From the NCBI RefSeq assembly GCF_900167555.1, contig NZ_FUYF01000020.1:1-37929 (forward strand): DNA of 37,929 nucleotides, given 5' to 3'. The DNA is from Gemmiger formicilis (GTDB taxonomy: Bacteria > Bacillota > Clostridia > Oscillospirales > Ruminococcaceae). This document shows, piece after piece, positions 19,181-37,929 of this stretch. Below the pieces are notes generated by a model. The model saw only the letters and a program-made list of their open reading frames with translations, did not search any database and was not told the DNA's origin. How positions within the stretch are numbered: position 1 is the stretch's first letter; the number at the start of each line of letters is the position of its first letter. The position numbers and the translations under genes are program-made.

Positions 19181-19207
19181 GCAAATCAACGATGGCTTTG
19201 GAAAACC

Positions 19208-21861: not shown

Positions 21862-22356
21862 ATGGGACTGTTTTCAAAGAAGAAAAATGAAGAAGTGGCT
21901 ATTGATGAACTAACACCACAAATAAAAACTAAGTTAGATGAATTAGCCCAAAAAGGCAATCAGTTTGAGGAAGAAGAACAATATGAGGAAGCTATACAAG
22001 CATGGAAAGAAGCTCTTAGCCTAATCCCAGAGCCACAGCAATTTTACAGTGAAACCATATGGTTTTTAGCTGCCATTGGCGATATTTATTTTCAAAAGAA
22101 ACAATACGAAAAAGCACACGAATGCTTTGACAAAGCAAGGGGGAATTTGAGCGGCGAGGGATATGGAAATCCGTTTGTTATGCTTCGATTAGGTGAATGT
22201 TGTTTAGAAATAGGGGACGAAAAAAACGCCACAGAATATTTGCTTAGAGCCTATATGTTTGAAGGAAGGGAGATATTTGAGCCTGACGAGGACGGTAATG
22301 ATGATGGCAAAAAATATTTTGATTATTTAAGAACTCATGTTGAAAACATTGAGTGA
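21862..22356 (+). CDS. tetratricopeptide-repeat protein, unknown role
   Basis: This 164-residue acidic protein contains at least three TPR-like helix pairs (EQYEEAIQAWKEALSLIPE, IGDIYFQKKQYEKAHECFDKA, LGECCLEIGDEKNATEYLLRAYMF) after a Lys-rich MGLFSKKKNEE start. It has no signal peptide or membrane segment. GGAGG lies 6 nt before the ATG. It is AT-rich compared with the mobilization genes, indicating a separate origin. Similar small TPR proteins serve as immunity or adaptor proteins, but nothing here proves that. Confidence 0.85.
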   Translation: MGLFSKKKNEEVAIDELTPQIKTKLDELAQKGNQFEEEEQYEEAIQAWKEALSLIPEPQQFYSETIWFLAAIGDIYFQKKQYEKAHECFDKARGNLSGEGYGNPFVMLRLGECCLEIGDEKNATEYLLRAYMFEGREIFEPDEDGNDDGKKYFDYLRTHVENIE

Positions 22357-22406
22357 AGATTAAGATAACACAGTTCCCATTTATCGAGCAGACAAGGAGG
22401 GAGAGC

Positions 22407-23207
22407 ATGGAACTATCCATACAAGAACGATTGAAAGATTTGCGTGTGGAGCGTGGGCTGACGCTGGAGCAGCTTGAGGAGCAGGTAAATCTCTCCAAGT
22501 CTGCGCTGGGCAGCTATGAAGCAAAGGATTTTAAGGACATCAGTCACTATGCTATTATCAAGCTGGCGAAGTTTTACGGTGTAACCGCCGATTATCTACT
22601 GGGGCTGTCCCAAACAAGAAATCACCCAAACGCTGATCTTGCAGACCTGCGTTTGAGTGATGATATGATTGAACTCTTGAAAAGTGGGTTGATAGATAAT
22701 TCCCTCTTGTGTGAACTGGCAGTACACCCGGATTTTCCCCGGCTGATGGCTGACCTCGAAATCTATGTAAACGGTATCGCAGGAAAACAGGTGCAGAGTG
22801 CAAATGCCATTATAGATGCTGTGAGCGCAACCATTATGAAGCAGCACAATCCCAGCTTGTCCGACCCGCAGCTAAGACAGCTTATCGCCGCTCATATTGA
22901 TGATGACAGCTTTTGCCGCTATGTGATACAGCAGGACATAAACAAGATAGCCCTCGACCTGCGGGAAGCCCATAAGGACGATTTTTTCAGCGTTCCGGAG
23001 GACAACCCACTGGAAGATTTCTTGCAGACCGCCGAGGAAACTGCCAGTCCAGACAGCGACCCGGAGCAAGCAGCTTTGGCGTTTATCTGTAAGCGGCTCA
23101 AATTGAATTTGAAAAAGCTGTCCGAAGATGAAAAGAAGTGGCTGAAAAAGATTGCACAGAAGTCGGACTTGCTGAAAAATCCAAACCCACAGAGGGGGAG
23201 GAAATAA
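22407..23207 (+). CDS. XRE-family helix-turn-helix protein
   Basis: This 266-residue protein has an N-terminal lambda-repressor-like HTH (about 2-62: IQERLKDLRVERGLTLEQLEEQVNLSKSALGSYE, IIKLAKFYGVTADYLLGL), followed by a helical region ending in LKKLSEDEKKWLKKIAQKSDLL. AAGGAGG lies 6 nt before the ATG at 22407; an upstream ATG overlapping the TPR gene stop is rejected. It probably regulates the cargo or the IME's mobilization genes, which diverge from it. The C-terminal part could sense a ligand or partner, but I recognise no domain there. Confidence 0.88.
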   Translation: MELSIQERLKDLRVERGLTLEQLEEQVNLSKSALGSYEAKDFKDISHYAIIKLAKFYGVTADYLLGLSQTRNHPNADLADLRLSDDMIELLKSGLIDNSLLCELAVHPDFPRLMADLEIYVNGIAGKQVQSANAIIDAVSATIMKQHNPSLSDPQLRQLIAAHIDDDSFCRYVIQQDINKIALDLREAHKDDFFSVPEDNPLEDFLQTAEETASPDSDPEQAALAFICKRLKLNLKKLSEDEKKWLKKIAQKSDLLKNPNPQRGRK

Positions 23208-23247
23208 GAGAGCGATAAATTGGAATGAACTGAGAGGAATTTTGTCT

Positions 23248-24063
23248 ATGAAAATAAATCTATCTAATTTTGAAACATCAGATGTATCTTTGTTTGATGT
23301 TTCAATCGTGCAAAGAGATGTTGGAGGCGGGAAAACGGAGAAAGAGGACATAGATTGTTTAGAGGAATATCCAACAGCAAAATCGTTGATTATATCGGGA
23401 CTAAATCAGGAATGTTTTGAATATTTAATCAAACATTATGGTAGTCAGTTTGAAGCTATTTCCTTTTGGAAAAATAAATCAGTCAGCGACTTGTCACCAT
23501 TAGAGGATTTAACAAATGTAAAATTCATTCATTTTTTCTTTAATCAAAAAGCTACGGATTTGTGGAATATGGAGCGTAATGAGAAGTTAAGTGGCTTGTC
23601 CATTTATGATTTTTCCAAATTACATTCGGTTGTAAAAGTTGCTACCGCACCATATTTGAATTATTTTTCCATAGGAAATCGTGTCTGGCCCAAAATGGAA
23701 ATAGAGAGCCTAAAGCCTTTAATTCATAGTCAAATTACACACTTTGGATGGTGGGGAGCAAAAATTTTGGATAATGATTATCTGTGTTTAGCGGATAGTC
23801 GTATTAAAAAATTAGATATGTTTATTAGGCATTTTACGATAGATGAACTGGCTCGACTGGTTGCTAACATTCCAGATTTAACAGGAGAAATAACGAAACC
23901 TTACAAGGAGTGTAGCATTATTGAAAGCGGGGAAAAAACGACCTATTATCTTCTCTGCAAAGGGAAACGAAAACTAATAAAGGGAAAAGATGATGATAAA
24001 TTAAAAAAGTATTTAGAGGATTACAATAGCTTAGTTGAGAAGTACAAAATAGAATATACATAA
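23248..24063 (+). CDS. unknown protein with leucine-rich-like N-terminal half
   Basis: This 271-residue protein of AT-rich codon use has no signal peptide. The first half shows irregular leucine/isoleucine spacing like a short leucine-rich repeat (KSLIISGLNQECFEYLIKHYGSQFEAISFWKNKSVSDLSPLEDLTNVKFIHFFFN); the C-terminal half is charged (KGKRKLIKGKDDDKLKKYLEDYNSLVEKY). AGAGG precedes the ATG at 23248. It follows the regulator gene by 40 nt and is probably co-transcribed. Such proteins are often found as solitary immunity-like genes, but I cannot assign a function. Confidence 0.82.
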   Translation: MKINLSNFETSDVSLFDVSIVQRDVGGGKTEKEDIDCLEEYPTAKSLIISGLNQECFEYLIKHYGSQFEAISFWKNKSVSDLSPLEDLTNVKFIHFFFNQKATDLWNMERNEKLSGLSIYDFSKLHSVVKVATAPYLNYFSIGNRVWPKMEIESLKPLIHSQITHFGWWGAKILDNDYLCLADSRIKKLDMFIRHFTIDELARLVANIPDLTGEITKPYKECSIIESGEKTTYYLLCKGKRKLIKGKDDDKLKKYLEDYNSLVEKYKIEYT

Positions 24064-24094
24064 CATCGGGGAGATAGCAAAGCCAGCCGAGCCA

Positions 24095-24140
24095 GTCAAC
24101 GGTCAAGATGAACGGTGCATATAAATGCACCGCCGTTGAC
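24095..24140. repeat. nested double hairpin after the cargo genes
   Basis: Outer arms GTCAACGG (24095-24102) and CCGTTGAC (24133-24140) enclose a second perfect stem CGGTGCAT (24113-24120) and ATGCACCG (24125-24132) with an ATAA loop. A 10-nt bulge separates the left arms, while the right arms abut. There is no T-tract, so a plain terminator is unlikely. Confidence 0.6.
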
Positions 24141-24172
24141 AGCCCCGCCCGTCTTTGCTAAAGGGTAATCAA

Positions 24173-24203
24173 GGCGGGAAAGCCCTAAAATGGCTTCCCG
24201 CCC
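24173..24203. other. GC-rich hairpin
   Basis: GGCGGGAAAGCC and GGCTTCCCGCC pair with a single bulged A and a short AT loop. It may end cargo transcription on the + strand together with the preceding hairpin, but no T-tract follows. Confidence 0.45.
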
Positions 24204-24254
24204 ATTTCAATTTTGAGAGAAAAATCTGTCTGCTTTTTCGTGAGTGTGTCCACA

Positions 24255-24279
24255 AGTTCGGGACATTTTGTCCCGAAGT
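24255..24279. repeat. CGGGAC-type palindrome, IME copy 2
   Basis: Inner arms CGGGAC (24259-24264) and GTCCCG (24270-24275) around ATTTT are identical in sequence, spacing and orientation to those of copy 1 at 21608-21632. The outer arms are imperfect by one base. The two copies bracket the AT-rich cargo. Confidence 0.75.
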
Positions 24280-24453
24280 CCGGCGTAGGACGAGGGACGG
24301 GGCTTTCATATACGCCCTGTCTGCTGATGAAACCAGTCCTGCGCTTGCGGCTCCACGCCACGCAATCACAGCCCTGTTTTCCTGCCGTTTCAAATGCCCT
24401 TGCCCTCCCCGGCGGCAACGACATTTTTACGGCAACGCCGACAGAGCGTATAA

Positions 24454-24503
24454 CACACTACACTTTGCAAGCAAAGTCGTGTGCCAAGGGGCAAGCCCCT
24501 TTG
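24454..24503. other. candidate oriT-like inverted repeats
   Basis: ACTTTGC (462-468 of this kilobase) and GCAAAGT (471-477) form a perfect stem extended imperfectly by CACAC/GTGTG, followed by AGGGGC-AA-GCCCCT. On the - strand this ends in GTGTGTTATACGC, an AT-rich step of the kind nicked at oriT sites. MobV relaxases act on such hairpins, but they usually lie near mob, and this one is 4 kb away, so the call is tentative. Confidence 0.35.
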
Positions 24504-24512
24504 GAAACCCCA

Positions 24513-24578
24513 GACAACAAAACAGGCTGAATATCTCGCACTTTCCCGGTGCTTGATATTCAGCCTTTATTTGTTGTC
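24513..24578. terminator. long inverted repeat at the IME right end
   Basis: Two collinear stems, GACAACAAA with TTTGTTGTC and AGGCTGAATATC with GATATTCAGCCT, form a long hairpin with a 19-nt loop. The outer A/T arms give a U-rich 3' side in both directions, so a bidirectional terminator insulating the IME from the ICE is plausible. Confidence 0.55.
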
Positions 24579-24600
24579 AGCAGCCCCGTTCCGTGGTTTG

Positions 24601-24621
24601 TGTGTAGTTCCTTGTAAACTG
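24601..24621 (-). repeat. right boundary inverted repeat of the IME
   Basis: This 21-bp segment is the inverted partner of 17549-17569 (20 of 21 positions). It lies 6 nt from the stop of the neighbouring ICE gene, so the IME inserted just after that gene without damaging it. Confidence 0.75.
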
Positions 24622-24627
24622 ACCTAA

Positions 24628-24942
24628 TCAGTAGTATAAATCATACAGACTACCAGCAAACTCGAGCAGCTTTCTGCCCAACCAGAACAGCACCTGCGGC
24701 GCGCCGTAAGGACTGAGCAAGAATGCCACGATGGCGGATACTGCCGCCTCTTGGTAGCACTTATCGAATAGCGCCAACAGAGCAGCCAGACCGCCCAGTG
24801 CCGCCAAAAACCTGCCGCAAACTCCGCAGATAGCAAACAGCACGATTGCAATCAGGCCCAGTGCAAGAAGTACCAGAATGACAGGCACGAGACTAATGCG
24901 GATACCCCAGGTAAGGAACAGATTTTTACGTTGAATGGGCAT
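24628..24942 (-). CDS. small membrane protein, CD1845-like
   Basis: This 104-residue protein has a long hydrophobic stretch (about 13-55), a second one (about 62-85) and the motif AFLLSPYGAPQVLFWLGRKLLEFAGSLYD, which resembles the CD1845 family encoded after the giant methylase/helicase in clostridial ICEs. Function is unknown. AGGAGG lies 8 nt before the ATG at 24942; a GTG three codons earlier overlaps it. It is the last gene of the ICE maintenance operon before the IME. Confidence 0.75.
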   Translation of the reverse strand: MPIQRKNLFLTWGIRISLVPVILVLLALGLIAIVLFAICGVCGRFLAALGGLAALLALFDKCYQEAAVSAIVAFLLSPYGAPQVLFWLGRKLLEFAGSLYDLYY

Positions 24943-25001
24943 AATGGCCACCTCCTACCTCTATGATACATGGTCTGCGAAATAATGCAAGGCTGTCGAT
25001 T

Positions 25002-28000
25002 TCAGCGTTCCAGTTCGTTTTCCTCTCTAGGCGTTCGCACAGAATCGTCCTCGTTTACGACCTCGGCCTCACTCTCCAGCACCGGGGCATCATTGCCCAC
25101 ATTCAGCAGGGCATCCAGCTCGGCCAGGCGCGCGCTCTTGTCGTTAAGCTCCTGTTCCTGCAGAAAAGGCTGCTGCAGTTCCTCTTTGGCGCTGTCCAAC
25201 TGGACGCGCAGCTGCTGTAGATTGTTGCGCAGACCGCTGACCTCCTGCGGCAGGGCAGCAACAACGTTTTGTAGGCGGACCATATTGCCGGCAGCGTCGC
25301 TGCCCAACTCTGTGGTATGGGTGGCCTGCCCGACCAGATGTGCCACAAACACCTTGGAAAGCGGCACATAGGCAACCGTGACTTCAAAGCCCGCATAGTG
25401 CCCCACCAAAACAGGATGGTCGGCCCGCACGGCAGCACCCACCAGCCCGAGCAGTGCCTTACCGGCATCCTCGCGCTTGTCGTAGGACGTGCCGTCCAGC
25501 TCAATGCTGAAAACCAGCTTGCCGTCCTTGTCATAGCTCTGACTGTCCTTGGCGGTCTGCATATCCTTCTCAAACGCCTGAATCCGGCATTCGGTGCCGC
25601 GGATCTCTCGCAGAAAGATGCCGGTCACGGCGTCCTCCAGTCGGTAGTGCTGGCTGTTGTAGGCGGCCTTCAGCGTGCGAAGCCGCGCAACCTGAATATC
25701 AAGGTCCATCTTTTCTTTGATCATCGGGTTTCCGGCAGCCAGCGCTTTTACCTCAGCGTAGGAGAGCGCAGCCTCGTCTAAATCCTCACAGCTGCGGGCA
25801 GGGGATTTTGACGTCATAATTTGCGAAATAAACTTCTGTTTGTTTTCGACCAACTGATAGCTGTAGGCGTCAAATGTGGCTTCGGTTATATAAATAAAGA
25901 TAGAAACCTCTTTGTTCATGTTACCCTGCCGCACCATGCGTCCATTGCGCTGGGCAATATCGGCTGGCCGCCATGGGCAATCAAGGTGATGGAGTGCACA
26001 CAGCCGCGTCTGTACGTTGGTGCCAGCGCCCATCTTCTGGGTGCTACCCATCAGCACGCGAACCGCACCGCTGCGGACTTTGCCGAACAGCTCAGCCTTC
26101 TTGGCTTCCGTATCGGCATCATGGATGAACTGTACCTCTTCTTTGGGAATGCCACGCGCCACCAGCTTGTCCCGAATATCGTTGTACACATCAAAGCCGT
26201 CCGCACGGGGTGTGCTCAAATCGCAGAAAATCATCTGCGTGGAGCGCTGCGCCTTTGTCTTTTCCCAAATGGTAAAGACCCGCTCCACGCAGGCATTCGC
26301 CTTGCTGTCGGGGTCATCGGGCAGAAGTGGATTCATCAGGCGCTGATCCAGCGCCAGCTTGCGGCCATCATTCGTGATGCGCAGCATGTTGTCCTCATTC
26401 GGGGCTACCAGGCGGTTCCGCACCGCCTCAGCCCGCTCACCCAGCGCCGCCACCATCTGCCGCTGCAGCTCGCTGGGCGGCAGCTTTACAATCGTGGGCT
26501 TGCCGCCCGTGATCTCGGGGACCGGCAGCTTCAGCATATCGGCGGTCTGAATGTCAGCACACTGCTTGAACATATTCATAAGCTCCGGCAGATTGTAGAA
26601 CTTTGCAAACCGTGTTTTAGAACGGTAGCCGTTGCCCTCGGGGGCCAGCTCAATCGCGGTAATGCTCTCGCCAAACGTAGAGGCCCACGCATCAAAGTTC
26701 AGCAGGCCTTCCTGCTCCAAAAGTCCATATTGCAGATACCGCATCATGATGTACATCTCGGTCATCGAGTTGGAAATCGGCGTGCCGGTGGCAAAGACAA
26801 TGCCGTGCCCGCCGGTCAGCTCGTCCATGTACATGCACTTCATATACATGTCGCTGGCCTTTTGGCTTTCGGTCTGTGAGATACCGGCCACGCGGGTCAT
26901 CTTAGTGGTAACCATTGCATTTTTGAAGTAGTGTGCTTCGTCCACCATCAGACTGTCCACGCCCAGCTCCTCAAAGGAGATGACGTCATCCTTGCGGCTC
27001 TGGTCGTTGAGCTTGTCCAGCTTCCGTTGCAGTTGCTTTTTCATGCGCTCCATCTGCTTGATGGTAAAATTCTCGGCGCGCTGGGCCTTCAGTGCCGCGG
27101 TCTGTGCCACTACATCGTCGATTTGCTTTTGCAGGTACATTTTCTGCCGTTCATCGGAAAGCGGTATCTTTTCAAATTGGCTGTGCCCAATTACAATGAT
27201 GTCAAAATTGCCGGTAGCAATGCGGGCACAAAATTTTTTGCGATTGGCCTTTTCGAAATCCGTTTTGCGCGCCACCAGAATTTCTGCGTTGGGGTAAAGC
27301 AACAGCGCCTCGGACGCCATCTGCTCGGTCAAATGATTGGGCACTACGATCAGTGTTTTATTGCAAAGGCCCAGGCGCTTCTTCTCCATAGCGCTGGCGA
27401 CCATCTCGAACGTCTTCCCAGCCCCTACCTCATGTGCCAGCAGTACGTTGTTGCCGTACAGCACATGGGCAATGGCGTTGCGCTGATGTGGCCGCAGCGT
27501 AATTTCCGGGTTCATGCCGGGAAAGCGCAGATTGCTGCCGTCGTATTCCCGCGGGCGGATGCAGTTGAATTTGCTGTTGTACAGGCTTACCAGCGCTTGC
27601 CGCCGCTGCGGCTCCTTGAAAATCCATTCTTCAAACTTGTCTTTTATCAAGCATTGCTTTGCGTAGGCAGCCTCGGTGGCGGCGTGGTTCAGTACGCTTT
27701 TTTTGTTTCCCTCTGCGTCGGTAACTGTATCAAACACCTGCACAGGCCGCAGGTTCAGCGCGGCCTCGGTGATTTCATAGGCATTCTTGCGGTTTGTGCC
27801 GTAGGTGATGGTTGCCTTGATGCTGCCGTTGCCGTAGCGCTTGTTCGTGATATTCCACTCACCGGTGAACGACGCAAACAGCACCTTCACGGAAAGTCGT
27901 GTAGACAGCGGCGGTTCCAAAAGCTCCATGAGGAAATCCTTAATATATTCAGGCGGTATCCAGGTAGCACCCAGACGCACCGCAATCTCGCTGGCGTCGA

Positions 28001-31000
28001 GGTCCTTCGGCTGTACCTGCTCCAGCGCCTTCACATTGACCTGATAGTCCGGGTCGGACGCTGCGGCCAGCCGGGCAACAGCCAGCTTTTGTCGCACATT
28101 GCCGGAAAGATATTCGTCAGCCGGCAGATAGACCGGCTCGGATTGCTCCGGGTCACTGAAGATAACGCCGGTCAAATCGCGTATAATTTCGTCCTGCGAT
28201 TTTCCCGTGACCTGTGCCATGTAGGTAAGGTCCACACGGGCCTTCTCGGTCAGGCTCAGCACCAGCGCTTCATCGGCGGTGTCCACATGGTCCACCACCT
28301 GGGCCGGGCGGATGGTCCGCTTCGTGAACATATCCGTCTTGCCCCTGTAATGGCCCTCGCTGTCGATATCCTCCAGCGAGCAGAGCAGGAAATACCCGGA
28401 ATCCTCACGAAACGCCGAAGCCGTGCCGCGGCTGTTGATTAGCCCATACGTATCGTGGTAGGAATCATACTGGGCGGTCAGCTGCGCTTGCAAAGCGGCA
28501 ATCGTTTCATCGGGCAGATTGTCCAGCTGTGCCCGAATCAGCTCCCGGCAGGTATCCCGCAGAGGAACCAGCGCCTTGATGCGGGCTAACGCGGAGGTGC
28601 TGGCCTTCACGGCGCGCATTTTGGAATTTTCACGGTAATAAACTGTGTCGTCTTTAACAACATAGCTGAAATTTCGTGAGCCGAGGTCAGCGCCGAGCGT
28701 GACGCTTTCCTCCTGCGCGTCCTCCCGGTCATCTGCCAGCGTGTACTCGGCCTGTAAATTGGCAAGGGCCGTGTCAAGCTGACCTTCCAGTGATGTGCCA
28801 TTTTCCAGAGGTGCGCAGGTGGGTCGCTGCCCGTAGGGGCCGCTGACCATCTGCATCTCGCCGCAGATCATCTCGGGATGGTCGATGAAATACCGGTTCA
28901 GCGGAATGCCGTCGGCAGTCTCGCCCACATGAATCCATGGCGCGTCCTGCTCCAAAACCCGCCCACGCTTTTGCAGAAACAGAATGTCCGAGGTAACGGT
29001 TGTACCTGCCTGTGCGGTAAAGGTATTGTTGGGCAGCCGCACCGCGCTGATCAAATCACAGCGGGCGGCCAGATACCGGCGCACGCCTTCGGACTTTTTA
29101 TCCATCGTGCCGGAGGTCGTTATAAACGCCATAATGCCGCCGACGCGGAGTTTATCTACGGTTTTGGCTAGAAAGTAATCGTGAATTTGAAAGTGCAGCT
29201 TGTCATATTGACGGTCCGTAACCTGATACTGTCCAAACGGAACATTGCCGATAGCCAAATCAAAGAAGCTGTTCGGCAGGTCGGCCTTTTCGTAGCCGCA
29301 GATTTGAATTTTGGCTTTCTGGTATAACTGCTGCGCGATGCGGCCCGATACACTGTCCAACTCGACGCCGTAGAGTTTTGCATTGTTCGTATCAAAGCTG
29401 CCGCTGCGGTGCCCAAAGAACGCACCTACACCCATGCTGGGCTCCAGCACATTGCCGCCCACGCAGCCCATGCGTGTCAGCGTGCGGTACATGGCATGGA
29501 TGACGGCAGGCGGGGTATAAAACGCTGTCAGCGTGGATTCCTGCGCGGCGGCGTATTCCTCCGGCGTCAGCAGTTCTTTCAGCTGCGTGTACTCGCTGTG
29601 CCAGTTGTCTTTATTAGGGTCAAAGGCATCGGAAAGACCGCCCCAGCCGAGATACCCGGCCAGAACATCCTGCTCGGCCTCTGTGGCCGGTGTGCCGCGC
29701 TGCTCGATTTGCTTGAGTGTCCGAATTGCGTTCAGATTGGCAACAAACTTGGCCTTTGCCCCTGTGGGAATCTCCGGCTCATAGGGTGCAAGGTAGTTGG
29801 TGGGGGCTTGCGCGGCGGTCTCGTCGGTAGGAAGGGCGTTTTCCTGCGGCTCGTGTTCTTCCACCTCGTCGAGGTCTATTTCCATGAGGCTGTCAAAATC
29901 AAGATTGGAGAGAACCGCCTGGTTCAGATCATCGAGCGAGCCATACCGTTCCTGCGCGTAGAGAGTGTCGTCCACCAGCTTGGTGACAGTGCAGTGCTCC
30001 AAATCAGCATACACCTGAATGACGTGCTTCTCATCCTCAGTGGTGGTATAGCCCAAATCGATTCGTGTCAGGTCGGAAAAGTCCGGCTCGGTGATTTCAA
30101 ATTCGTCCTTGAGATAATCCTCAATGTAGGATAGCGCCTGTTCCGTCTGCGCTTGCACAAGAGCTTCGTGCTGCTGCTCGGAGAGCATCATGCCGCCGTT
30201 GCGCGGGTTGGCGTCCAGCTGCCGCTGAAACTCCTCCCGGCTGATGGCGCGTCCGATCAGGGGGACTTCCTCATCCCGTAGATGCACCTCAAACTGCCCG
30301 ATGCGCTCAACGGTGAATCGGTGGTCATCCTCCAAGTAGACAACGCTGCCCTCGGCGCAAATCGGTCTGGTATCCGGTACGTTGCCGGGCTCATCGCGCA
30401 CCACACTGGCAACTTTACGCTGCTCGGCAGCCCATGCGGGATACTGTTCCAGCTCCTGCGGCGTCAGAAAGCGCTGCATCTCGATCAGATAAGCAATGCG
30501 CTTGGCTGCGGCCCGCCATAGCAGCCTGCGCTCAAAGCGTCCTTCCTCATTTGTCAAAATCAACTTCAATCCGGCAGGGCCGTGGTCCACCCAGCCGTGC
30601 GCACCATTTTGGTAGTCCCATGACCTGCCGCCACTGCCGTATTCCTTCTTCAAAAAAGCGGCGTGGTCGTCCTGCGTGGTGGTGAACTGCTGATAAATGC
30701 GAAATTTGCTGTTTTCAAAATTGCTGCCCACTGCCAGAGCCAGGTTAATTTCCTCGTCCGTGATAACGCTGCCGTCATCCATCTGCGGGGCATTGTACTC
30801 TGCAACGGGCAGGGCAGAGCGAATGACGGTTTCCTGCTTTTCCGGGGTGAGAAAATCATCCTTTTCCAACCTGTCATCTTCCGCGCTCGTCGGCGAACCG
30901 TCAGTCAGTTCAAAGGAAAGCTGTTCCTCTACCTGCGGCAGTTTCTTCGGGTCTATGGTCGCAATCAGCTCATGCTGTTCAATCAAGTCGTTCAGCGCAT

Positions 31001-32462
31001 TGGCCACGGCACGCCACGACAGCAGCGTTTCCGCGCTGCGGGTCAGATACGCGCCCTGCCAGACAAGCAGGCCATTGTTCTGCCTGTGAAAGCCCACGCG
31101 GGTATCATCGGCCAGCAAAAGCTCTGTAAAAATATCCTTGTAGCTTTCCCGCACAAAGCGCAGCCGGTCAATGAGCAGGGGATTCTTATTATAAAAAGTA
31201 AGATACTCGGCGTTATCTGCCCGGGAAGAAGTCTCTGCCGCCAGCAGCTGCGGCAGTAGGTCAGCCGGAAATTCAGGCAAAGCAAAAGCGGAGGGCGATT
31301 GCTCGCTCTCCGCCTGTGCGGGGGATTCTGTCAGATTTCGTACAACATCGGAAGGACTGCTTCCTCCGCCTGCTTCTTCAGACTGTTGGTCAGCTGTGCC
31401 CAGCCCAGCGGGTTCGTCCTGCGGTCCGGCATCGGGGTGGTCTGCATCAGCTCGCGCAGGGTCTTGTCCACCATCCGCTGTGCTGTCCGTCCGATTCGGC
31501 TGCAGCTCGTCAGCAGCGTGCCCTCCAGCATCAGCTGGTCGCAGAGCGTCGGCTCGTTCTGTTCCAGATATTCCAGACGCAGCCTCGCGTAGCGGTTCAG
31601 GTACGGGTTCGGCTGGTTCGGCAGGGAAAGGCTCGGAATCAGGTAGCCTTCGCGGTTCTTCGTGTACGTCATGAGTAACGGCCTCCTCTCGGCTGTTCAA
31701 TTGTGTTGGTGTGCTTTCATTATGAACTGGTTCGTGCGGTATTGCAATGCTGTCACGGTTTAGTCGCAGCGCCCCGCGCCCAATGTCATTCAGCATCGGT
31801 TCTGCGGCGGCCTGTACATAGCCGCCCAAGCAGAGTGAAATCTGACAGGTGTCGAACTGGCTGACGCTTTGAAATGCCGGAAAATCCTCGTCCTGCACCG
31901 GCAGCCCGATTCGCAGCAGTGCCATGTAGACAGCGCTTTGTGTGACCAGTGCCTGCAAGAGCTGCATCTGCTCGTCAGGCTGCGCCCATTGCAGCGTGCT
32001 GTCCGGCACATTGCGTTCCAGCATACGGCGGGCACGATCTGCATCGTTGGAGACGCCATCCTGCGCCAGCGCCGTCAGCCAGTCATCGGGTTTGCCTTGC
32101 AGGAGCAGCGGGCGCGTTGTGTCCGTGACCTCCCACGGCCCGCCGGTGCGCGTCTGGCTCAATGGTGTGGTATCGCCGATGGCAAAGACCGGCTTTGTCA
32201 CCGCCACGCCCTGTCGGCGCTGCAGCACGGTGATGCATCTGCTGCCGCGCATGACCAGCCGGTTCGCCTTCGTATTCCAGTATTCCATGCTGGCACAGGC
32301 TGCGGCGTCGGGCCGCTGGGCGTGAATCAGCAGTTGGTTCAGATAGGTGGTGTGATAGTTGTGGGCGGCAGTGTACAAAAAGCTCTGCCACGCCTGCGGC
32401 GATGCTGTGACCCGCACGGCCTCCTGCCGAGCCAGCTGAAATATATCCTGCGGTTTCGGCAT
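25002..32462 (-). CDS. giant polyvalent DNA methylase/SNF2-type helicase (LtrC-like)
   Basis: This 2486-residue protein has an N-terminal ArdC-like antirestriction/ssDNA-binding region (about 1-230) and a low-complexity Glu/Ala/Pro/Asp linker (about 230-400). Middle domains follow, then an N6-adenine methylase-like domain ([33 protein letters not shown] near 1075). The C-terminal part is a superfamily 2 helicase with HEVGAGKT (near 1690), VDEAHYFKN (near 1840) and [10 protein letters not shown] (near 2170). The catalytic NPPY/F motif reads NVPF, so methylation activity is uncertain. Such proteins are thought to protect or process incoming ICE DNA. The ATG at 32462 is preceded by AGAAAGGTAGG from the end of the YodL-domain gene. 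The linker overlaps a tnpV-like gene in another frame. Confidence 0.92.
31331..31672 (-). CDS. TnpV-like protein overprinted inside the giant gene
   Basis: This 113-residue protein has the TnpV pattern: [45 protein letters not shown], then [11 protein letters not shown] and [25 protein letters not shown]. TnpV-type proteins accompany clostridial transposons; their function is unknown. GAGGAGG lies about 9 nt before the ATG at 31672. The whole gene is on the same strand as the giant methylase/helicase but in another frame, matching that protein's low-complexity linker (about residues 264-377). Both frames look coding: TnpV by family resemblance, the giant by domains on either side. Confidence 0.75.
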
Positions 32463-32470
32463 CTTGACAC

Positions 32471-33532
32471 CTACCTTTCTAATTCATCTAAATTGTGCTC
32501 CTGCCGCTCAACTTCCATATCATGAAGCTCCGGCAGCAGTCGGCTTACATCTTTAAAGCCAACGGCATCCACATACAGGGCTTCGGCTTTATCACCGCGC
32601 TCCATGACGATCAGATCACTGACGGACAAAGACGGCATACTGTTGGCGCAGGGGCGGTCATCATAATTAAAATCCCGGAAGCACTTGTCCGGTGTGTAGT
32701 CCCGGGGCATGTTTGCCACATAGGCACAGCGGTAATCGGTGGCCTTCAGCTTGTTTTGGGCGTAGTCATAATCCGTAAAGCGATATTCGCAAGTGTAATG
32801 TGGAATTTGATATATCAGCAGTCTGTCCAACTTGTCACCCGGCTGCGGATGCTCCGGCTCAACATAACAGCCTCTTTTGAAGCACTGATTTGCATACTGC
32901 TGGATGTGGCAGAAACGACTACCTACGTAAAAGTGTGTATCGTCAACTGTCTGCACATCTTTCACCAGCTGTGAACCATCCGCGTAGTTTTCAATAATGC
33001 GCTGACCATTGCGCACCTGAAACAACTGCTGCCCATCACGGTTCAGAAAACGTGAGAAGCGAAGTGCGCTGCAAAGCTCCGGTGCATTGGCCCACTCGGT
33101 TATGTGGATGTCTTTACCAACATGTACCTTTGTGTGACCATTTTCTTCCGTGTAGTAGTGAGGCCGGATACGATCTACGCCAACTGCCGTCACAAGCTGC
33201 TTTGCCATTTCAATGAGCTGCTTGTCATTGCGATCTGCAAAGGGACCACGGTAATCATCACACAGGTAATTGACGCCGTTCCGCACCTGTATGATGGTTA
33301 CTGCGCCATCCGGGTTACGGCGGTCAATTCCAACAGTCAGGCGCGGGTAGGGAAGATTGGTGCGCTCGTTCCAGGTGTACTCGTTGTTGTATGGCATTTC
33401 TCTCAACTGCTTGTAGCGCTTCATCAAATCAGCAGTATTGGAAAAGAACTCCGTCGGAGCTTGTTCTTCAAACTGTTGCGGAAAGACGTGCGACATGAAA
33501 TCGGGAATCAGGTAATATCTGTACTCTGCCAT
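32471..33532 (-). CDS. YodL-domain ICE protein
   Basis: This 353-residue soluble protein ends with a YodL-type segment (about 295-345: [38 protein letters not shown]). The rest ([18 protein letters not shown] onward, with many Tyr and Arg) is conserved-looking but not recognised. YodL domains occur with LtrC-like proteins in clostridial ICEs; no activity is known. The ATG at 33532 lies one base after the parB stop, and the codons for the last residues of ParB (CTGGAGCG) supply the ribosome binding site. Its own tail does the same for the next gene. Confidence 0.8.
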
Positions 33533-33533
33533 T

Positions 33534-34490
33534 TCAACGCTCCAGACTGGTTTGTTTTTCCGGCATAAGATGGCGGGAGTTTCGTTCCAGAAGCTGCATG
33601 ATGATTCCTACCATCTGTTCTTGTGTGCAGCCGGCGGGAAAGTAGCGGGCAATTTTGCTGATGCTGATGGTCAGCGTAGGGTCGCGGGGTGGTACACTGG
33701 GCTTTTTCGAACCCATGATTTCCAGCAGCTTGCCATGATCCAGCGCACCTTCCTTGCTGGCGGCCTTGAGCTTCTGTGCTTGTGATAACGACGGTGAGCA
33801 GGACTGAGATTCAATGTAATCGAGGAAATCATTCTGCTCGGAGGGGGAAAGGTAAGAAAGCTCGACGGCGGGGTTGAACTTCAGGCTACCGTCGTCGACT
33901 TTCTTTTGCAGGTCTGGGACGAGGCTATTTAAGCGAATATACCGTCTAACTTGCATACGACTATCGCCAGCTTCTTTACCCACGATGTCAGCGCTTTCCA
34001 ACTTCCGCCCAACTTGGGCGGAAGTTAAATCTTGTCGTGCTCCTTGGCGACTGATAGCTTCCAGCTTCATCGCATACGCCCTGGCCTTCTCCATCGGGCT
34101 GATATGCTCTCTCTGAATATTTGAATCGACCATATCAATAATCGCCTGGTCATCATCAATATCCCGCACCTGAACCTTGACCCTATCCAGCCCGGCTCGT
34201 TGTGCTGCGTGGAACCGCCTGTGCCCACTGATGATCTCATACCCGCCCTCTGCGCGGCGGCGCACGGTCAGGTTGGTGAGCACACCGTTCTCCCGGATGC
34301 TGTCCACCAGCTTCTGCATGTCCTCATCGTCACGCACCTCAAACGGATGCCCAACGAACGGATGCAGCTCGGAAAGCGGCACCTCTGTGACCAAATCGCC
34401 GCTTTCCCGCTGCCTGTCAGCCTCCGAGGAAAACATATCATCGATTGAGGGCATCTTCATCGCGTTCAAAAACTTGTTCTTCGCGGCCAT
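33534..34490 (-). CDS. ParB-family partition protein
   Basis: This 318-residue protein has a ParB N-domain (about 30-130: PLSELHPFVGHPFEVRDDEDMQKLVDSIRENGV, IISGHRRFHAA, SNIQREHISPMEKARAY) with the GHRR and NxQRE motifs of the CTP-binding pocket. A central HTH with VRRYIRL and a C-terminal domain follow. It should bind a centromere-like site and work with ParA to keep the excised ICE. The ATG at 34490 follows GGAGG and lies 53 nt inside parA. A perfect 27-nt palindrome is embedded at codons for TSAQVGRKL. It has a paralogue at 36850-37716. Confidence 0.93.
   Translation of the reverse strand: MAAKNKFLNAMKMPSIDDMFSSEADRQRESGDLVTEVPLSELHPFVGHPFEVRDDEDMQKLVDSIRENGVLTNLTVRRRAEGGYEIISGHRRFHAAQRAGLDRVKVQVRDIDDDQAIIDMVDSNIQREHISPMEKARAYAMKLEAISRQGARQDLTSAQVGRKLESADIVGKEAGDSRMQVRRYIRLNSLVPDLQKKVDDGSLKFNPAVELSYLSPSEQNDFLDYIESQSCSPSLSQAQKLKAASKEGALDHGKLLEIMGSKKPSVPPRDPTLTISISKIARYFPAGCTQEQMVGIIMQLLERNSRHLMPEKQTSLER
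34000..34026. repeat. intragenic palindrome in parB (CCGCCC type)
   Basis: Arms CCGCCC (34005-34010) and GGGCGG (34016-34021) are flanked by AACTT and AAGTT and separated by AACTT, giving 11-bp perfect arms and a 5-nt spacer. It lies at the same codons as the palindrome in the paralogue at 37319-37345. Confidence 0.85.
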
Positions 34491-35274
34491 AGCCGGATAC
34501 CTCCTTCGCAAATTCAATATAGGCCTTTGCACTGTTGCTTTTCGGGTCGTACAGAATCGTCGGCTCTGCATTGGCCTGGCTCTCCTGTACCTTCACGTTT
34601 CTGGGAATCTCCGTTGTGAAAACGTGAATCTTATTGCCGTAGGTGCTGCGGACCTGCCCGCAGTAGTGGTCGGAAACGTTCGTGTGCTCGGTCATTGTCA
34701 GCAAGATGCCCTTCACGCGCAGCCCGGGGTTGATCTTACGCTGCACATTGGCAATGGAGGACGTCAGCTGCGACATGCCCACAACGGAGAATGGCTGTGC
34801 CTGCATCGGAATAATGATTTCATTCGCGGCGGCCAGCGCATTGGGCAGCAGCAGGCCAACAGAGGGGGAACAGTCGATCAGACAGTAGTCGTACTGATTG
34901 TTGTACTGCTCCAGGCAGGATTTCAGAAGCACCTCGCGGCACATCATCGTGCCCATGGCCAGCTCAAAGCCCGCCAGCCGTAGGTTGGACGGGATAAAAT
35001 CCACCCGTGCGGCAGCCTCCTTGCGTCCGGTCTGGTAGACACACTCCCGATTTCCTATCGGCTTTTCACAGGAGGTCTTCATCAGCAGCTCCGTAATGGT
35101 TTGGTCAAGGTCCTTTTCCGGTGGGATACCGCAGTAGCAGGAAAGATTGCCCTGCGGGTCAAAGTCCACCATCAGGACGCGGTAGCCCTGCTGGGTCAGG
35201 GCAATGCCGAGGTTATACGTTGTGGTCGTTTTCCCCGTGCCGCCCTTCTGGTTTGCGATTGCGATTGTTTTCAT
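34438..35274 (-). CDS. ParA-family partition ATPase
   Basis: This 278-residue Walker-type ATPase has the deviant Walker A KGGTGKTT (10-17), VDFDPQGN (about 37-44) and CLIDCSPSVG (about 132). It drives segregation of ParB-bound DNA along the nucleoid. It has no N-terminal HTH, so it is unlikely to repress its own promoter. The ATG overlaps the stop of the TOPRIM gene, and its 3' end overlaps parB. The stretch before residue 278 (REEQVFERDEDALNR) is fitted to encode the parB start region. Confidence 0.95.
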   Translation of the reverse strand: MKTIAIANQKGGTGKTTTTYNLGIALTQQGYRVLMVDFDPQGNLSCYCGIPPEKDLDQTITELLMKTSCEKPIGNRECVYQTGRKEAAARVDFIPSNLRLAGFELAMGTMMCREVLLKSCLEQYNNQYDYCLIDCSPSVGLLLPNALAAANEIIIPMQAQPFSVVGMSQLTSSIANVQRKINPGLRVKGILLTMTEHTNVSDHYCGQVRSTYGNKIHVFTTEIPRNVKVQESQANAEPTILYDPKSNSAKAYIEFAKEVSGYGREEQVFERDEDALNR

Positions 35275-36245
35275 CTTGTTTCCTCCAAAATATCATCCAT
35301 GCTGATGCAGTGCGCGCGGTATTCCTGCATGTACTGCACCAGCGTGTCGTTGTAATCCTTGCCCACCGGCGGCGGGCGGTCCTCTACAGCTTTGCCGCTG
35401 CCCGCAAGGTGCGCAATAATATCCTGCGTTCGGGTCCGCCCTGCGTTGTCGTTGTCCAGACAGAGGACGATTTTGCGGACTGACGGAAAATACTTCAAAA
35501 ACGCATCCAGCGCGGCATAGTCTGTGCCGCCCAGCGCCAGATAATGGACACTGCGCCATGACCTCGTGTGCTGTATGAGCTTTAGAGACGCACCGGACAT
35601 AGCGTCAATGGGGGCCTCGTATACCTCAACCGTGTCGGCCTTAGTGCTGGCCTGTATGTAGAACGGGTAAATTTTCTTGCTTCCGGGAATATCGCGCCGG
35701 AATTGCAGCTGCGTACAGCCACGCAAGCTGCCGCCTTTCGCAACGCCCTCACCATCACGTCCAACAAATACGCAGTTCGGGTGATTTTTGAAGCTAGTTT
35801 GGTACAAAATGCCCTCCTTGCGGCAGAACGCTAGTACATTGGGGTGGATACAGCGCCAACGCAGATACGCCATAGCGGAATAGCTGTTTGTGTCCGGCTC
35901 GGGCAGCTTGAAATCTCGCGGCGCTTCCGGTTCAGCGCGTGGCTGCGGCAGACTTACAGGTTGGGAAGAATGAACCACGCCGCCTTGGATGCGGTTGATT
36001 TTCCGCACGGCCTCCACATAGGGCACCTTCTCGACGTCGATCAGATACTTCAGCGCCGTGCGTCCGCGCAGGCCGATGCAGTGCCAGCACCAAAGGCTGT
36101 CTTTGCTGATGGTCAGCGAACTGTGTACCTTGTGGCGGTATTCCTTGCCCACGAGCTTCAGGTTGCCTGGCTCAACGAGTTTGAAGTAGGTCAGCAGGTC
36201 CAACTCCTTCGCCCGCGCGATTTCTTCCTTCGTCACCCCGGCCAT
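35271..36245 (-). CDS. TOPRIM-domain primase-like protein (DUF3991 type)
   Basis: This 324-residue protein has a degenerate DnaG-like zinc-finger region (LTISKDSLWCWHCIGLRGRTALKYLI), a DUF3991-like middle part (LRWRCIHPNVLAFCRKEGILYQT) and a TOPRIM domain with the acidic residues in VYEAPIDAMS (near 215) and CLDNDNAGR (near 263). Related proteins prime or process ICE DNA during replication. It is the first gene of an operon running through parA, parB, yodL-type and giant genes. The three-palindrome array lies upstream. Confidence 0.88.
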   Translation of the reverse strand: MAGVTKEEIARAKELDLLTYFKLVEPGNLKLVGKEYRHKVHSSLTISKDSLWCWHCIGLRGRTALKYLIDVEKVPYVEAVRKINRIQGGVVHSSQPVSLPQPRAEPEAPRDFKLPEPDTNSYSAMAYLRWRCIHPNVLAFCRKEGILYQTSFKNHPNCVFVGRDGEGVAKGGSLRGCTQLQFRRDIPGSKKIYPFYIQASTKADTVEVYEAPIDAMSGASLKLIQHTRSWRSVHYLALGGTDYAALDAFLKYFPSVRKIVLCLDNDNAGRTRTQDIIAHLAGSGKAVEDRPPPVGKDYNDTLVQYMQEYRAHCISMDDILEETR

Positions 36246-36294
36246 ACTCTACACCCCGTATTCTGTTTTTCAATCTGTTTTCTGTATCGTTCTA

Positions 36295-36321
36295 ATCAGT
36301 CTAATTACTATCAGTCTTATT
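36295..36321. repeat. two 12-bp direct repeats upstream of the TOPRIM gene
   Basis: ATCAGTCTAATT (36295-36306) and ATCAGTCTTATT (36310-36321) differ at one position and are 15 bp apart. They lie between the palindrome array and the operon start, so they could be part of the promoter or of an origin. Confidence 0.55.
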
Positions 36322-36325
36322 TGCG

Positions 36326-36391
36326 TGTGATAATCACATCTCCAGAAGTGTGAAAATCACACTTCAAGAAATGTGATTTTCACATTTCTTG
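36326..36391. promoter_or_regulatory. array of three TGTGA-N3-TCACA palindromes at 23-bp spacing
   Basis: Three 13-bp palindromes with core TGTGA-N3-TCACA lie at 36326-36338, 36349-36361 and 36372-36384. Their centres (36332, 36355, 36378) are exactly 23 bp apart. The second and third have longer perfect arms (9 and 12 bp). The array fills the gap between the RepA-N gene and the primase-parA-parB operon. It could be an operator set, a ParB-binding centromere or RepA iterons; the sequence does not decide which. Confidence 0.8.
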
Positions 36392-36393
36392 AT

Positions 36394-36750
36394 TTATGAC
36401 GAAACAGCAAAGTTTTTCACATAAATCAAGCTGGGCTTTCCCAGCCCCTGGCGCTTGCGCTCAATCAGACCTGCATCCTTTTCCAGCTCGAGCATCAGGC
36501 GGCAGGCCTTCTGGTTGGCACAGCTCAGGGCCTCCATGATTTCCTCGGTTGTGAAGATGATGTAGACCCGGCTCTGTTCATCCAGCCAGTGATTCTTGAC
36601 CGACAGGCTCATGCGGTCCAGCAGGATACCGTACAGGACCTTGGCGTCGGTGGACAGCGGCTTGAACTGCGGGTCTGTGAACAGCACCTTGGGGATGCGA
36701 TAGAATGAGAACTGCTCGGCCTGACTGCCGTAAAAGTAGTCAAATTGCAT
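36394..36750 (-). CDS. RepA-N domain protein (short)
   Basis: This 118-residue protein equals the N-terminal winged-helix domain of replication initiator A: FSFYRIPKVLFTDPQFKPLSTDAKVLYGILLDRMSLSVKN, then CANQKACRLMLELEKDAGLIERKRQGLGKPSLIYV. The usual C-terminal half is absent. The stop lies 3 nt before the third palindrome of the 23-bp array, so this protein is a candidate binder of that array. GGAG precedes the ATG at 36750. It is homologous to the IME protein at 20597-20992. Confidence 0.87.
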   Translation of the reverse strand: MQFDYFYGSQAEQFSFYRIPKVLFTDPQFKPLSTDAKVLYGILLDRMSLSVKNHWLDEQSRVYIIFTTEEIMEALSCANQKACRLMLELEKDAGLIERKRQGLGKPSLIYVKNFAVSS

Positions 36751-36849
36751 GGTTGCTTCTCCAAAAAGCGCGCACTCGAATAAGCCTGACAGAATACCGT
36801 GTTTTTGGCATCCTAACCGGGCCTTATAAATAAGGTTGTGTGTGGCATT

Positions 36850-37716
36850 TTACCGTTCCAGTTCCTGTTGGCTCTGAGTATGCTCGTGGGCATGGCCCCA
36901 GGTTTTCAGCAGGGAGAATATCGTGTTCTGCATCTGCTCGGGCGTATAGCCGGGAGGGAAGAACCTCTGTACGTCAGATTGATTCAAGAAAAACTTCTGC
37001 CTTTGATTGGGCTTCTGCTCGGTGAGCAGGGTATGCAGGTAGTGCTCCGTCAGTGTGCCGCTATGGCTCATCTCCTTAAGGCGGCGGGACTGCACCAGAG
37101 AAGGTGTGGCCTCGCAAAGCTCCATCTCGGCCTGCAGCCACCGCTGGTGCTCAGGCGTCATGTAGGAGATCTCTACCGCGGGGTTGAACGCCATGCGGGA
37201 TTCATCGACCATTTGCAGGATGGGGGAGATGAGATGCGTTAGTCGAATATAACGTTGCACCGTCTTATAGCTTTCGCCGGATGACGAACCAATTTGAGAA
37301 CCTGTTCGACGGTCATCTAACTTCGGGACAACTTGTCCCGAAGTTGCCCGTCCCTGATGCTTCATCGCATCCATCTTCATTTTATACGCAAACGCCTTCT
37401 CACTCGGTAGTACATGCTCGCGCTGGATATTGCTGTTCACCATTAAAATGGTAGCTTCATCATCCGTCAGCTCCTGCACGCGGACCGGCACCTTCTCAAT
37501 GCCCAGCTCCCGGCAGGCCTCACATCTGCGGTGTCCGCTGATGATCTCATAACCACCCTCGGGTCTGCTGCGCACGATCAGCGGAACAATAACGCCGCTT
37601 TCCCGGATGCTGTCCACCAGCTCATTCATCTCCATATCCTTGCGGACATGGAACGGATGGTTGGCAAAGGTATGCAGCAGCGCAGGGGAGACGTTCAATT
37701 CCAAGCTATTCGGCAT
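36850..37716 (-). CDS. second ParB-family protein
   Basis: This 288-residue paralogue of the ParB at 33534-34490 has the ParB N-domain (VDSIRESGVIVPLIVRSRPEGGYEIISGHRRCEA, NSNIQREHVLPSEKAFAYKMKM), the HTH region (VQRYIRLTHLI) and a similar C-terminal part (FNPAVEISYMTPEHQ, FFPPGYTPEQM). No ParA is next to it. It is the ICE gene nearest the right attachment site, a place where factors acting early after transfer or controlling excision often lie. A perfect palindrome is embedded at codons for TSGQVVPKL. GAAGGAA-type purines precede the ATG at 37716. Confidence 0.9.
   Translation of the reverse strand: MPNSLELNVSPALLHTFANHPFHVRKDMEMNELVDSIRESGVIVPLIVRSRPEGGYEIISGHRRCEACRELGIEKVPVRVQELTDDEATILMVNSNIQREHVLPSEKAFAYKMKMDAMKHQGRATSGQVVPKLDDRRTGSQIGSSSGESYKTVQRYIRLTHLISPILQMVDESRMAFNPAVEISYMTPEHQRWLQAEMELCEATPSLVQSRRLKEMSHSGTLTEHYLHTLLTEQKPNQRQKFFLNQSDVQRFFPPGYTPEQMQNTIFSLLKTWGHAHEHTQSQQELER
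37319..37345. repeat. intragenic palindrome in second parB (CGGGAC type)
   Basis: Arms CGGGAC (37324-37329) and GTCCCG (37335-37340) are flanked by AACTT and AAGTT and separated by AACTT. Frame, flanks and spacer equal those of the first parB palindrome; the arms differ at three positions with matching changes on the other arm. Confidence 0.85.
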
Positions 37717-37786
37717 GATTTATTCCTTCTTTCCTTCCTTTATCAGTCACAAAGCAAAATATATTTATAAAATTCGTACATTTCTA

Positions 37787-37815
37787 TTGACATTCTCGGT
37801 ACAGTCAGTTATAAT
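37787..37815 (+). promoter_or_regulatory. promoter of right-hand tRNA-Pro
   Basis: TTGACA (37787-37792), a 17-nt spacer and TATAAT (37810-37815) lie 30 nt before the tRNA. The hexamers and distance equal those of the left copy, but most of the spacer differs. Confidence 0.85.
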
Positions 37816-37819
37816 AATC

Positions 37820-37929
37820 AAGCTGATTCGAGACAGCCCGGTTGACCGGGTGTAGCGCAGTTTGGTAGCGCGCTTGAATGGGGTTCAAGAGGCCGTGAGT
37901 TCGACTCTCGCCACTCGGACCAAAGATGG
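37820..37929 (+). repeat. right direct repeat (att site) containing tRNA-Pro
   Basis: This is the right copy of the 1569-1678 repeat with a single difference at 37834. The window ends inside it, so the true end of identity is not visible. Confidence 0.85.
37846..37922 (+). tRNA. tRNA-Pro (GGG), right copy
   Basis: This 77-nt gene is identical to the left tRNA-Pro, with anticodon GGG and encoded CCA at 37920-37922, and it has its own consensus promoter. If the crossover is at the tRNA 3' end, this copy and its promoter belong to the ICE and would stay on the excised circle. Confidence 0.94.

What the first reader, a model, noticed from the sequence alone, without database searches (positions are those of the whole stretch)
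34000..37345. Covarying palindromes at homologous codons of two parB paralogues
Both ParB genes contain a perfect 27-nt palindrome at the same place in the protein (TSAQVGRKL and TSGQVVPKL). The flanks (AACTT/AAGTT) and the AACTT spacer are identical, but the six-base arms are CCGCCC/GGGCGG in one and CGGGAC/GTCCCG in the other. Three arm positions differ, and each change is matched on the opposite arm. Amino-acid constraint alone does not predict this, so a selected DNA or RNA structure is likely, for example a ParB-specific binding site inside its own gene or an mRNA control hairpin. Different arms could give each paralogue its own site.
Basis: partly seen in the sequence, partly recalled or inferred. 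Interest (0 to 1): 0.78.

Follow-up and report, generated by a model that had tools for sequence, protein, structure and literature searches.

The report
ParB genes carrying their own address
Two DNA-partition genes on a bacterial mobile element each seem to carry, inside their own coding sequence, the DNA site that their protein reads, and in related genes the site changes in step with the amino acids that read it, so each gene appears to travel with its own address label.

Summary
In detail: perfect 27-nt palindromes lie at homologous codons of two parB genes, and their arms differ at three matched positions. It is not peculiar to these two. Of 164 unique ParB homologues, 148 carry a palindrome in the linker between ParB_N and the HTH, with 69 different 6-nt arms; among homologues found by protein search it is 131 of 152. 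Synonymous randomisation gives 4.5 of 10 pairs against 9.2 observed, and mismatches are not enriched for G·U in the mRNA.

Decisively, arm bases covary with a few HTH residues (165, 167, 178, 179, 182 of ParB1) far more than with any of 231 columns outside this region. A rule built on one set predicted 76 of 88 arm bases in 22 new ParBs. Best reading: each palindrome is the cognate, parS-like site of the ParB encoded around it, and site and reader form one exchangeable cassette.

ParB2's arms recur twice in a nested mobilizable element with no ParB of its own, which suggests hitch-hiking. Binding and partition remain untested. It works like repABC RepB/parS but is not a member.

The parts
34000..34026 (.). 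27-nt palindrome (arms CCGCCC) inside parB1: proposed cognate site of ParB1
   Evidence: homologues; its variable bases predicted at only 2 of 4
37319..37345 (.). 27-nt palindrome (arms CGGGAC) inside parB2: proposed cognate site of ParB2
   Evidence: variable bases predicted at 4 of 4
33534..34490 (-). parB1 (318 aa): ParB_N and HTH_ParB domains; follows parA
   Evidence: model pLDDT 88
33933..33998 (-). codons 165-186 of parB1: HTH with the covarying residues E165, A167, R178, M179, R182
   Evidence: covariation; structure; coordinates counted from the start codon
36850..37716 (-). parB2 (288 aa): ParB_N domain; nearest parA is that of parB1, 1.6 kb away
37246..37311 (-). HTH codons of parB2 (RRTG... 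to ESYKTVQRYI) with the reading residues
   Evidence: coordinates counted from the start codon
34438..35274 (-). parA (278 aa ATPase), overlapping the start of parB1
21608..21632 (.). free-standing palindrome with ParB2's arms (CGGGAC), in the nested mobilizable element
   Evidence: a CGGGAC palindrome at the same place in relatives L504 and L505
24255..24279 (.). second free-standing CGGGAC palindrome of the nested element (one outer mismatch)
   Evidence: a form with one CGGGAC and one GTGGAC half at the same place in L504, L505, L508
17602..24522 (.). nested mobilizable element (approximate bounds): serine recombinase 17602-19113, Mob_Pre relaxase 19470-20411, RepA_N 20597-20992, Cys_rich_VLP 21104-21682
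   Evidence: relatives elsewhere; ends not mapped
1595..37922 (.). the ICE-like element: two tRNA-Pro genes (1595-1671, 37846-37922) with a tyrosine integrase at 1735-2967
   Evidence: integration itself not tested

Best explanation
Each palindrome is the specific DNA-binding site (parS-like, about ACTTYNNNNCANNNTGNNNNRAAGT) of the ParB encoded by the gene that contains it. It lies in the DNA for the poorly ordered linker just before the HTH, where the peptide is free to vary. Residues at the start of one HTH helix (165, 167) read arm base p6; residues at the start of the recognition helix (178, 179, 182) read p3-p5. The ParB dimer would load on this site and, with ParA, act on the excised or replicating element; autoregulation is also possible. 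Because site and reading helices lie within about 35 codons, one recombination event can exchange both and keep them matched. Shown by sequence: the palindromes, their conservation, the covariation, the prediction of new sites, near-identical genes that differ in site and reader together. Inferred: binding, loading, partition or regulation, the recombination step, and the use of ParB2 by the nested element.
For: Palindrome in 148 of 164 unique ParBs, 147 of these 148 in one codon phase, 69 arms; within the 148, half-sites match at .78-.95 for p3-p7 against .33-.43 from base composition. 131 of 152 in homologues found by protein search. 9.2 of 10 pairs against 4.5 with synonymous codons. Covariation in 134 non-redundant of 180: p3-179 z 31, p4-179/178 z 20/16, p5-182 z 18, p6-165/167 z 26/15; 231 columns outside residues 154-186 reach at most z 5.0; many residues go with one base (179: N-C 33/34, D-G 24/24, E-A 12/12; 165: R-G 35/38, K-T 14/14, E-C 12/12, Q-A 5/5). 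New-data prediction 76 of 88 bases, 0 of 20,000 shuffles as good. Leave-one-out with relatives of 60% flank identity or more removed.86/.76/.78/.91 for p6-p3 against .38/.26/.36/.39 for the nearest remaining relative (n 148). Of 93 pairs over 85% identical on both flanks, 65 differ in arms, with HTH identity .55 against .97 when arms agree. Three ParBs below the linker threshold have palindromes 2.5-4 kb from the gene start whose half-sites match the predicted bases at 3 or 4 of 4. parA beside 95 of 161 ParBs with room upstream. Residue 178 aligns with the R of GKSR in Spo0J, which I equate with R173 of Caulobacter ParB, a known specificity residue (PMC7383237, passages).
Against: No binding data. 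ParB1's own arms were predicted at only 2 of 4 bases (M179 is rare). Some residues do not go with one base (R179 splits A/C, K179 and A167 are mixed), and 171, 180, 181 also covary with p3 (z 7-11). In 130 of 133 cases no second site with the same arms was seen in the flanks held, whereas plasmid centromeres often hold several. No avoidance of shared arms within genomes. Of 24 ParBs below the linker threshold, 21 showed no substitute site in the stretch held (13 of these stretches under 5 kb) by the criteria. No parA within 2 kb for 59 of 161. Linkage inside an exchanged cassette could inflate covariation, though the variable neighbours 168-169 and 172-176 show z of 3.7 or less for p3-p6.
Confidence: 0.87

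Rival explanations
1. An mRNA hairpin in the linker controls translation or folding of ParB; compensatory change keeps the stem.
For: A perfect hairpin is possible on either strand, and pairs covary.
Against: Mismatches are not enriched for G·U in the mRNA (19 of 119, against 50 A·C); A·C would be G·U in an antisense RNA, which this test does not exclude. A stem alone does not predict covariation of arm bases with HTH residues. Free-standing copies with the same arms occur outside parB genes.
Confidence: 0.04
2. Palindromes are kept perfect by template-switch (quasi-palindrome) correction during replication, without function; the cassette is hypervariable for other reasons and linkage does the rest.
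For: Such correction makes matched changes in one event (general knowledge, no call). Site and HTH are close, and differ together between near-identical genes.
Against: It does not explain why particular residues go with particular bases, also among ParBs under 60% identical on the flanks, or the matching free-standing sites.
Confidence: 0.05
3. The palindrome is read by ParB, but as an operator of a transcription regulator (KorB-like), not as a centromere. This shares the reading step with the best explanation and is not exclusive of it.
For: ParB2 has no parA beside it; no parA within 2 kb for 59 of 161 ParBs with room. KorB is among the structural relatives.
Against: The site lies mid-gene, not at an evident promoter. 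parA is adjacent in 95 of 161, as in a parAB operon.
Confidence: 0.25
4. Dispersed palindromic repeat (REP-like or inserted palindromic element) that landed in parB.
For: Similar palindromes occur outside parB in other genomes.
Against: Only two exact pattern hits in this genome, both in parB. In the linker and in one codon phase in 147 of 148 homologues, with different arms.
Confidence: 0.02

Closest known systems
RepB/parS of repABC plasmids (Alphaproteobacteria)
   Same: ParB-family protein with palindromes of fixed flanks and variable arms, consensus GTTNNNNGCNNNNAAC, often several copies (PMC9040568, passages); one parS lies within the repB coding sequence in a Rhizobium leguminosarum plasmid (PMC4492784, passages).
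   Different: Other consensus and spacing (ACTTYNNNNCANNNTG...), no RepC seen; here most genes have the site in the same linker beside the reading helices, and near-identical genes differ in both together.
Chromosomal ParB/Spo0J and Noc with parS/NBS
   Same: ParB_N and HTH architecture; recognition-helix residue R173 and others set specificity (PMC7383237, passages). That B. subtilis spo0J contains a parS site is recalled; search 115 for it returned nothing.
SGI1 hijacking of IncC parABS
   Same: A mobilizable element carries two parS-like sites read by another element's ParB (PMC10954446, passages).
   Different: Different families; here only sequence evidence, in a serine-recombinase/Mob_Pre element nested in the ICE.
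KorB of RK2
   Same: ParB-fold protein (structure match) with 12 palindromic operators (stated in passages of PMC10954446).
   Different: KorB sites serve mainly as transcription operators (general knowledge); here the main site is inside the gene.

Membership tests
ParABS (type Ia) partition system | ParB_N (CTPase-fold) domain | tested here: met
   PF02195 in both, E 1.6e-18 and 1.1e-17; model of ParB1 matches ParB/Noc structures
ParABS (type Ia) partition system | HTH DNA-binding domain | tested here: met
   HTH_ParB in P0001 at 26 bits, cut-off 22.6; not reported in P0002 but aligned there; helices 166-174 and 178-189 in the ParB1 model
ParABS (type Ia) partition system | ParA ATPase encoded beside ParB | tested here: met
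   for ParB1 (P0003) and 95 of 161 homologues with room; not for ParB2
ParABS (type Ia) partition system | cis palindromic site read by the cognate ParB | tested here: inconclusive
   strong covariation and prediction; no binding measured
ParABS (type Ia) partition system | stabilises the replicon, exerts incompatibility | not testable with these tools
   needs experiment; within-genome arm sharing shows no avoidance
repABC RepB/parS | parS consensus GTTNNNNGCNNNNAAC | tested here: not met
   sites here are about ACTTYNNNNCANNNTGNNNNRAAGT; consensus
mRNA hairpin element | G·U tolerance in the transcribed strand | tested here: not met
   19 G·U of 119 mismatches, 50 A·C
REP-like dispersed palindromic repeat | many copies of one sequence per genome | tested here: not met
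   exact flank pattern found only twice in 3.24 Mb, with different arms
SGI1-type parS hijacking | satellite carries sites for another element's ParB and has none itself | tested here: inconclusive
   two CGGGAC sites in the nested element; relatives L504, L505 and L508 keep one or both and show no ParB in the 16-20 kb held; function untested

The most novel reading that the evidence does not exclude
In this clade of mobile-element ParBs the gene is self-addressed: a roughly 35-codon cassette encodes the reading helices and is itself the site they read, so a single recombination event creates a new, already matched ParB-site pair and a new partition type. Satellite elements without a ParB carry free-standing sites, sometimes arrays of different sites, to use the ParBs of whichever conjugative element is present.
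Probability: 0.55. Interest if true: 0.9.

Novelty: new variant of a known kind. Interest (0 to 1): 0.82.

Why it matters
ParB-site specificity has been dissected in depth for the ParB/Noc pair (PMC7383237, passages). Here nature supplies 180 ParBs (134 non-redundant), each with its probable cognate site written in the same gene, so a protein-DNA recognition code can be read from sequence and tested at once. It suggests a simple answer to how a binding protein and its site can change together without a mismatched intermediate: they are the same stretch of DNA. It would give predicted centromeres and partition types for a little-studied set of ICEs and plasmids, and predicts which satellites can use which helper. 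It also offers many candidate orthogonal ParB-site pairs for DNA labelling.

Tried and rejected
mRNA hairpin: tested by G·U versus A·C mismatches, not supported. Peptide motif as the selected feature: rejected, because ParBs with a different linker (KENxxQVGxN type) keep palindromes with other flanks and synonymous randomisation destroys pairing. Dispersed repeat: rejected. Orthogonality inside one cell: 22 genomes, 48 pairs, 4 shared arms against 1.53 expected; no avoidance, so not claimed (genome labels typed from the call tables). Many same-arm copies around each gene: 9 sites in 3 of 133 cases, swap control 0.07 (flanks held were often only 1.5 kb a side); one more lies 30 kb from its gene, outside the flank scanned (G009:C5). 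The first protein scan of viral contigs with P0001 found no relative; that with P0002 found 2. p7 was dropped from the code: its strongest partners are palindrome-encoded residues.

What was left out before counts: one search listed more matches than I fetched; I took 100 regions, mostly the best-scoring, so the sample leans to closer relatives. Of 11 plasmid and 22 phage records with a match, 8 and 7 were fetched. ParB ORFs under 200 aa (first set) or 180 aa (new set) and duplicates by their last 200-250 aa were removed. 16 of 164 were below the hairpin threshold; at least four of these (L405, L406, L420, L289) still pair at 9 of 11. The half-site match rates are for the 148 that passed that threshold. 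In the new-data test 8 of 40 without a palindrome and 10 of 40 at 85% or more flank identity were set aside; majority-base baselines were .50/.50/.36/.68 for p3-p6. In covariation, columns under 80-85% occupancy were left out. In one search, 'protein search' means loci numbered L269 on, after removal of duplicates of pattern-found genes. The weights of the predictor were written by hand from the covariation, in the same script that scored it; the new DNA had been fetched but its arms not examined. Pairs are not independent.

Papers: searches gave no description of this arrangement in Clostridia elements; passages of PMC7383237, PMC9040568, PMC4492784, PMC10954446 and PMC12207404 were seen, the rest only as listings. 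The library lacks most subscription papers and all preprints, so absence there is weak evidence.
Full report
What is there. Both palindromes are as described. They lie in parB1 (33534-34490, minus strand, after a parA) and parB2 (36850-37716) of an ICE-like element with a tRNA-Pro gene at each end and a tyrosine integrase beside one of them. In the predicted structure of ParB1 (mean pLDDT 88) the palindrome encodes residues 156-164 of a linker (151-165; block means 53 and 73) between helix 132-150 and HTH helices 166-174 and 178-189.

It is general. A pattern scan across genomes returned a two-humped set of 270 matches: arms 0-2 of 6 complementary (156) or 4-6 of 6 (95), with 19 at 3. Protein searches gave a sample not chosen by the palindrome. 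Of 164 unique ParBs from all sources so far, 148 have a linker palindrome, 147 of them in one codon phase, with 69 different arms; within the 148, half-sites agree at p3, p4, p5, p6, p7 in 95, 91, 88, 94, 78% against 35, 41, 33, 37, 43% from base composition. In the sample from protein search: 131 of 152. ParBs with another linker peptide also have palindromes, with other flanks. Randomising synonymous codons gives 4.50 of 10 pairs, observed 9.20; in 75% of genes none of 200 randomisations pairs as well. So the DNA dyad is kept beyond what the peptide requires. Mismatches are not biased to G·U in the mRNA (19 of 119; A·C 50; other 50), which speaks against an mRNA stem.

What reads it. Mutual information between arm bases and alignment columns singles out residues of the HTH. 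In 109 non-redundant ParBs, again in 134 of 180, and in 93 from protein search: p3 with 179, p4 with 179 and 178, p5 with 182, p6 with 165 and 167. Columns encoded by the palindrome itself (157, 158, 161, 162) covary trivially and are not counted. Residues 171, 180 and 181 also covary with p3 (z 7-11). Outside residues 154-186, 231 columns reach at most z 5.0. Many pairings are nearly exclusive and chemically ordinary (Arg with G and Gln with A at 165-p6; Asn179 with C, Asp179 with G, Glu179 with A at p3); others are mixed (Lys179, Ala167, Gln182). Residue 178 aligns with the R of GKSR in Spo0J, which I equate with R173 of Caulobacter ParB, a residue that sets ParB/Noc specificity; counting back from that anchor puts 167 at the DNA-contacting Q162 (PMC7383237; this last alignment is my inference).

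Prediction. A simple rule using these five residues was applied to ParBs fetched afterwards from viral, plasmid and phage records. Of 40, 32 had a palindrome and 22 of these were under 85% identical to training on the flanks: p3, p4, p5, p6 were right in 91, 86, 77, 91%, against 55, 68, 45, 50% for the nearest relative and 50, 50, 36, 68% for the commonest base; 76 of 88 bases, 14 of 22 fully right, 0 of 20,000 shuffles as good. Leave-one-out with relatives of 60% flank identity or more removed gives .86.76.78.91 for p6, p5, p4, p3 (nearest remaining relative .38.26.36.39). For the window, ParB2 is predicted 4 of 4 and ParB1 2 of 4.

Exchange as a unit. Among 93 pairs over 85% identical on both flanks, 65 have different arms; their HTH identity is .55 against .97 for the 28 pairs with the same arms. 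Site and reading helices thus differ together inside otherwise near-identical genes; recombination is the simplest cause but was not tested as such.

Natural exceptions. 24 of 204 ParBs are below my palindrome threshold; L405, L406, L420 and L289 among them still pair at 9 of 11. Where longer flanks were held, three of the 24 (L452; L376 and L459, which share one linker and one site) have a palindrome 2.5-4 kb from the gene start whose half-sites match the prediction at 3 or 4 of 4 bases. L413 has two, one in and one just after the gene, matching at 3 of 4 by my reading against the prediction. For the other 20 none was seen, in mostly short stretches.

Free-standing sites. ParB2's arms recur at 21608 and 24255, inside a nested mobilizable element (serine recombinase, Mob_Pre, RepA_N). 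Relatives of this element in other genomes keep sites at the same places: both in L504 and L505, the second only in L508 (the stretch around the first is not matched there); the second has one changed half. None shows a ParB in the 16-20 kb held. Three further partial relatives (L506, L507, L509) do not cover the site positions. The sites thus belong to the passenger, which could use the ICE's ParB2, as SGI1 uses IncC ParB (PMC10954446). This step is inferred. Elsewhere, four loci in three genomes carry 3-4 different palindromes mostly 54-68 bp apart; in L487 they lie beside a TnpV gene and near a serine recombinase, and the other three have frames of like size in like places that I did not scan.

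Mechanism and limits. The simplest mechanism is a parS-like site loaded by the ParB it sits in: parA is adjacent in 95 of 161 cases with room, absent within 2 kb in 59. Partition and regulation cannot be separated here. A second same-arm site was seen in only 3 of 133 cases in the flanks held. There is no sign that co-resident ParBs avoid shared arms. No binding has been measured.

Compared with the known. repABC plasmids have variable-arm parS palindromes, and one is reported inside repB, so the kind is known. Different here are the near-constant place in the gene beside the reading helices, the readable code, and the joint change of both as one cassette. Ten library searches found no description of this, within the limits of that library.

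Noticed in passing
L487 8568-8771, L488 3570-3707, L489 8383-8573, L490 7983-8117: Arrays of three or four different palindromes (TCCGAC, TCCGCC, TGTGCC, CAGACC cores) mostly 54-68 bp apart, in three genomes; in L487 beside a TnpV gene and near a serine recombinase (the others not scanned). Three of the four cores match ParB cores. Possibly landing arrays for several ParBs.
   Followed up: partly
L260 1002-7848; L492 1970-4143; L377 7553-8640: Stretches with several copies of the CGGGCC palindrome spread over kilobases; L492 lies in conjugation genes (PrgI, TrbL_2). Some ParBs of this group may use many sites.
   Followed up: partly
L029 (G009:C5 40041) and L491 9409 (G009:C5 70407): The same palindrome, with the same single mismatch, occurs in a parB gene and 30 kb away on one contig.
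   Followed up: no
window 36326-36399: Three overlapping inverted repeats of a TGTGA...TCACA type at the 3' end of the RepA_N gene (36394-36750): iteron-like, perhaps part of a replication origin.
   Followed up: no
window 20597-20992 and 36394-36750: Two RepA_N initiator-like genes, one in the nested element and one in the ICE.
   Followed up: no
L493 406-2442: A single 678-aa frame joins a TrbL_2 and a relaxase domain, unusual for conjugation genes; may be an assembly error or a real fusion.
   Followed up: no
L191 2255-2448, L201 5755-6107: Clusters of several different palindromes in MAG contigs, with no relative of these ParBs found in the stretch.
   Followed up: no
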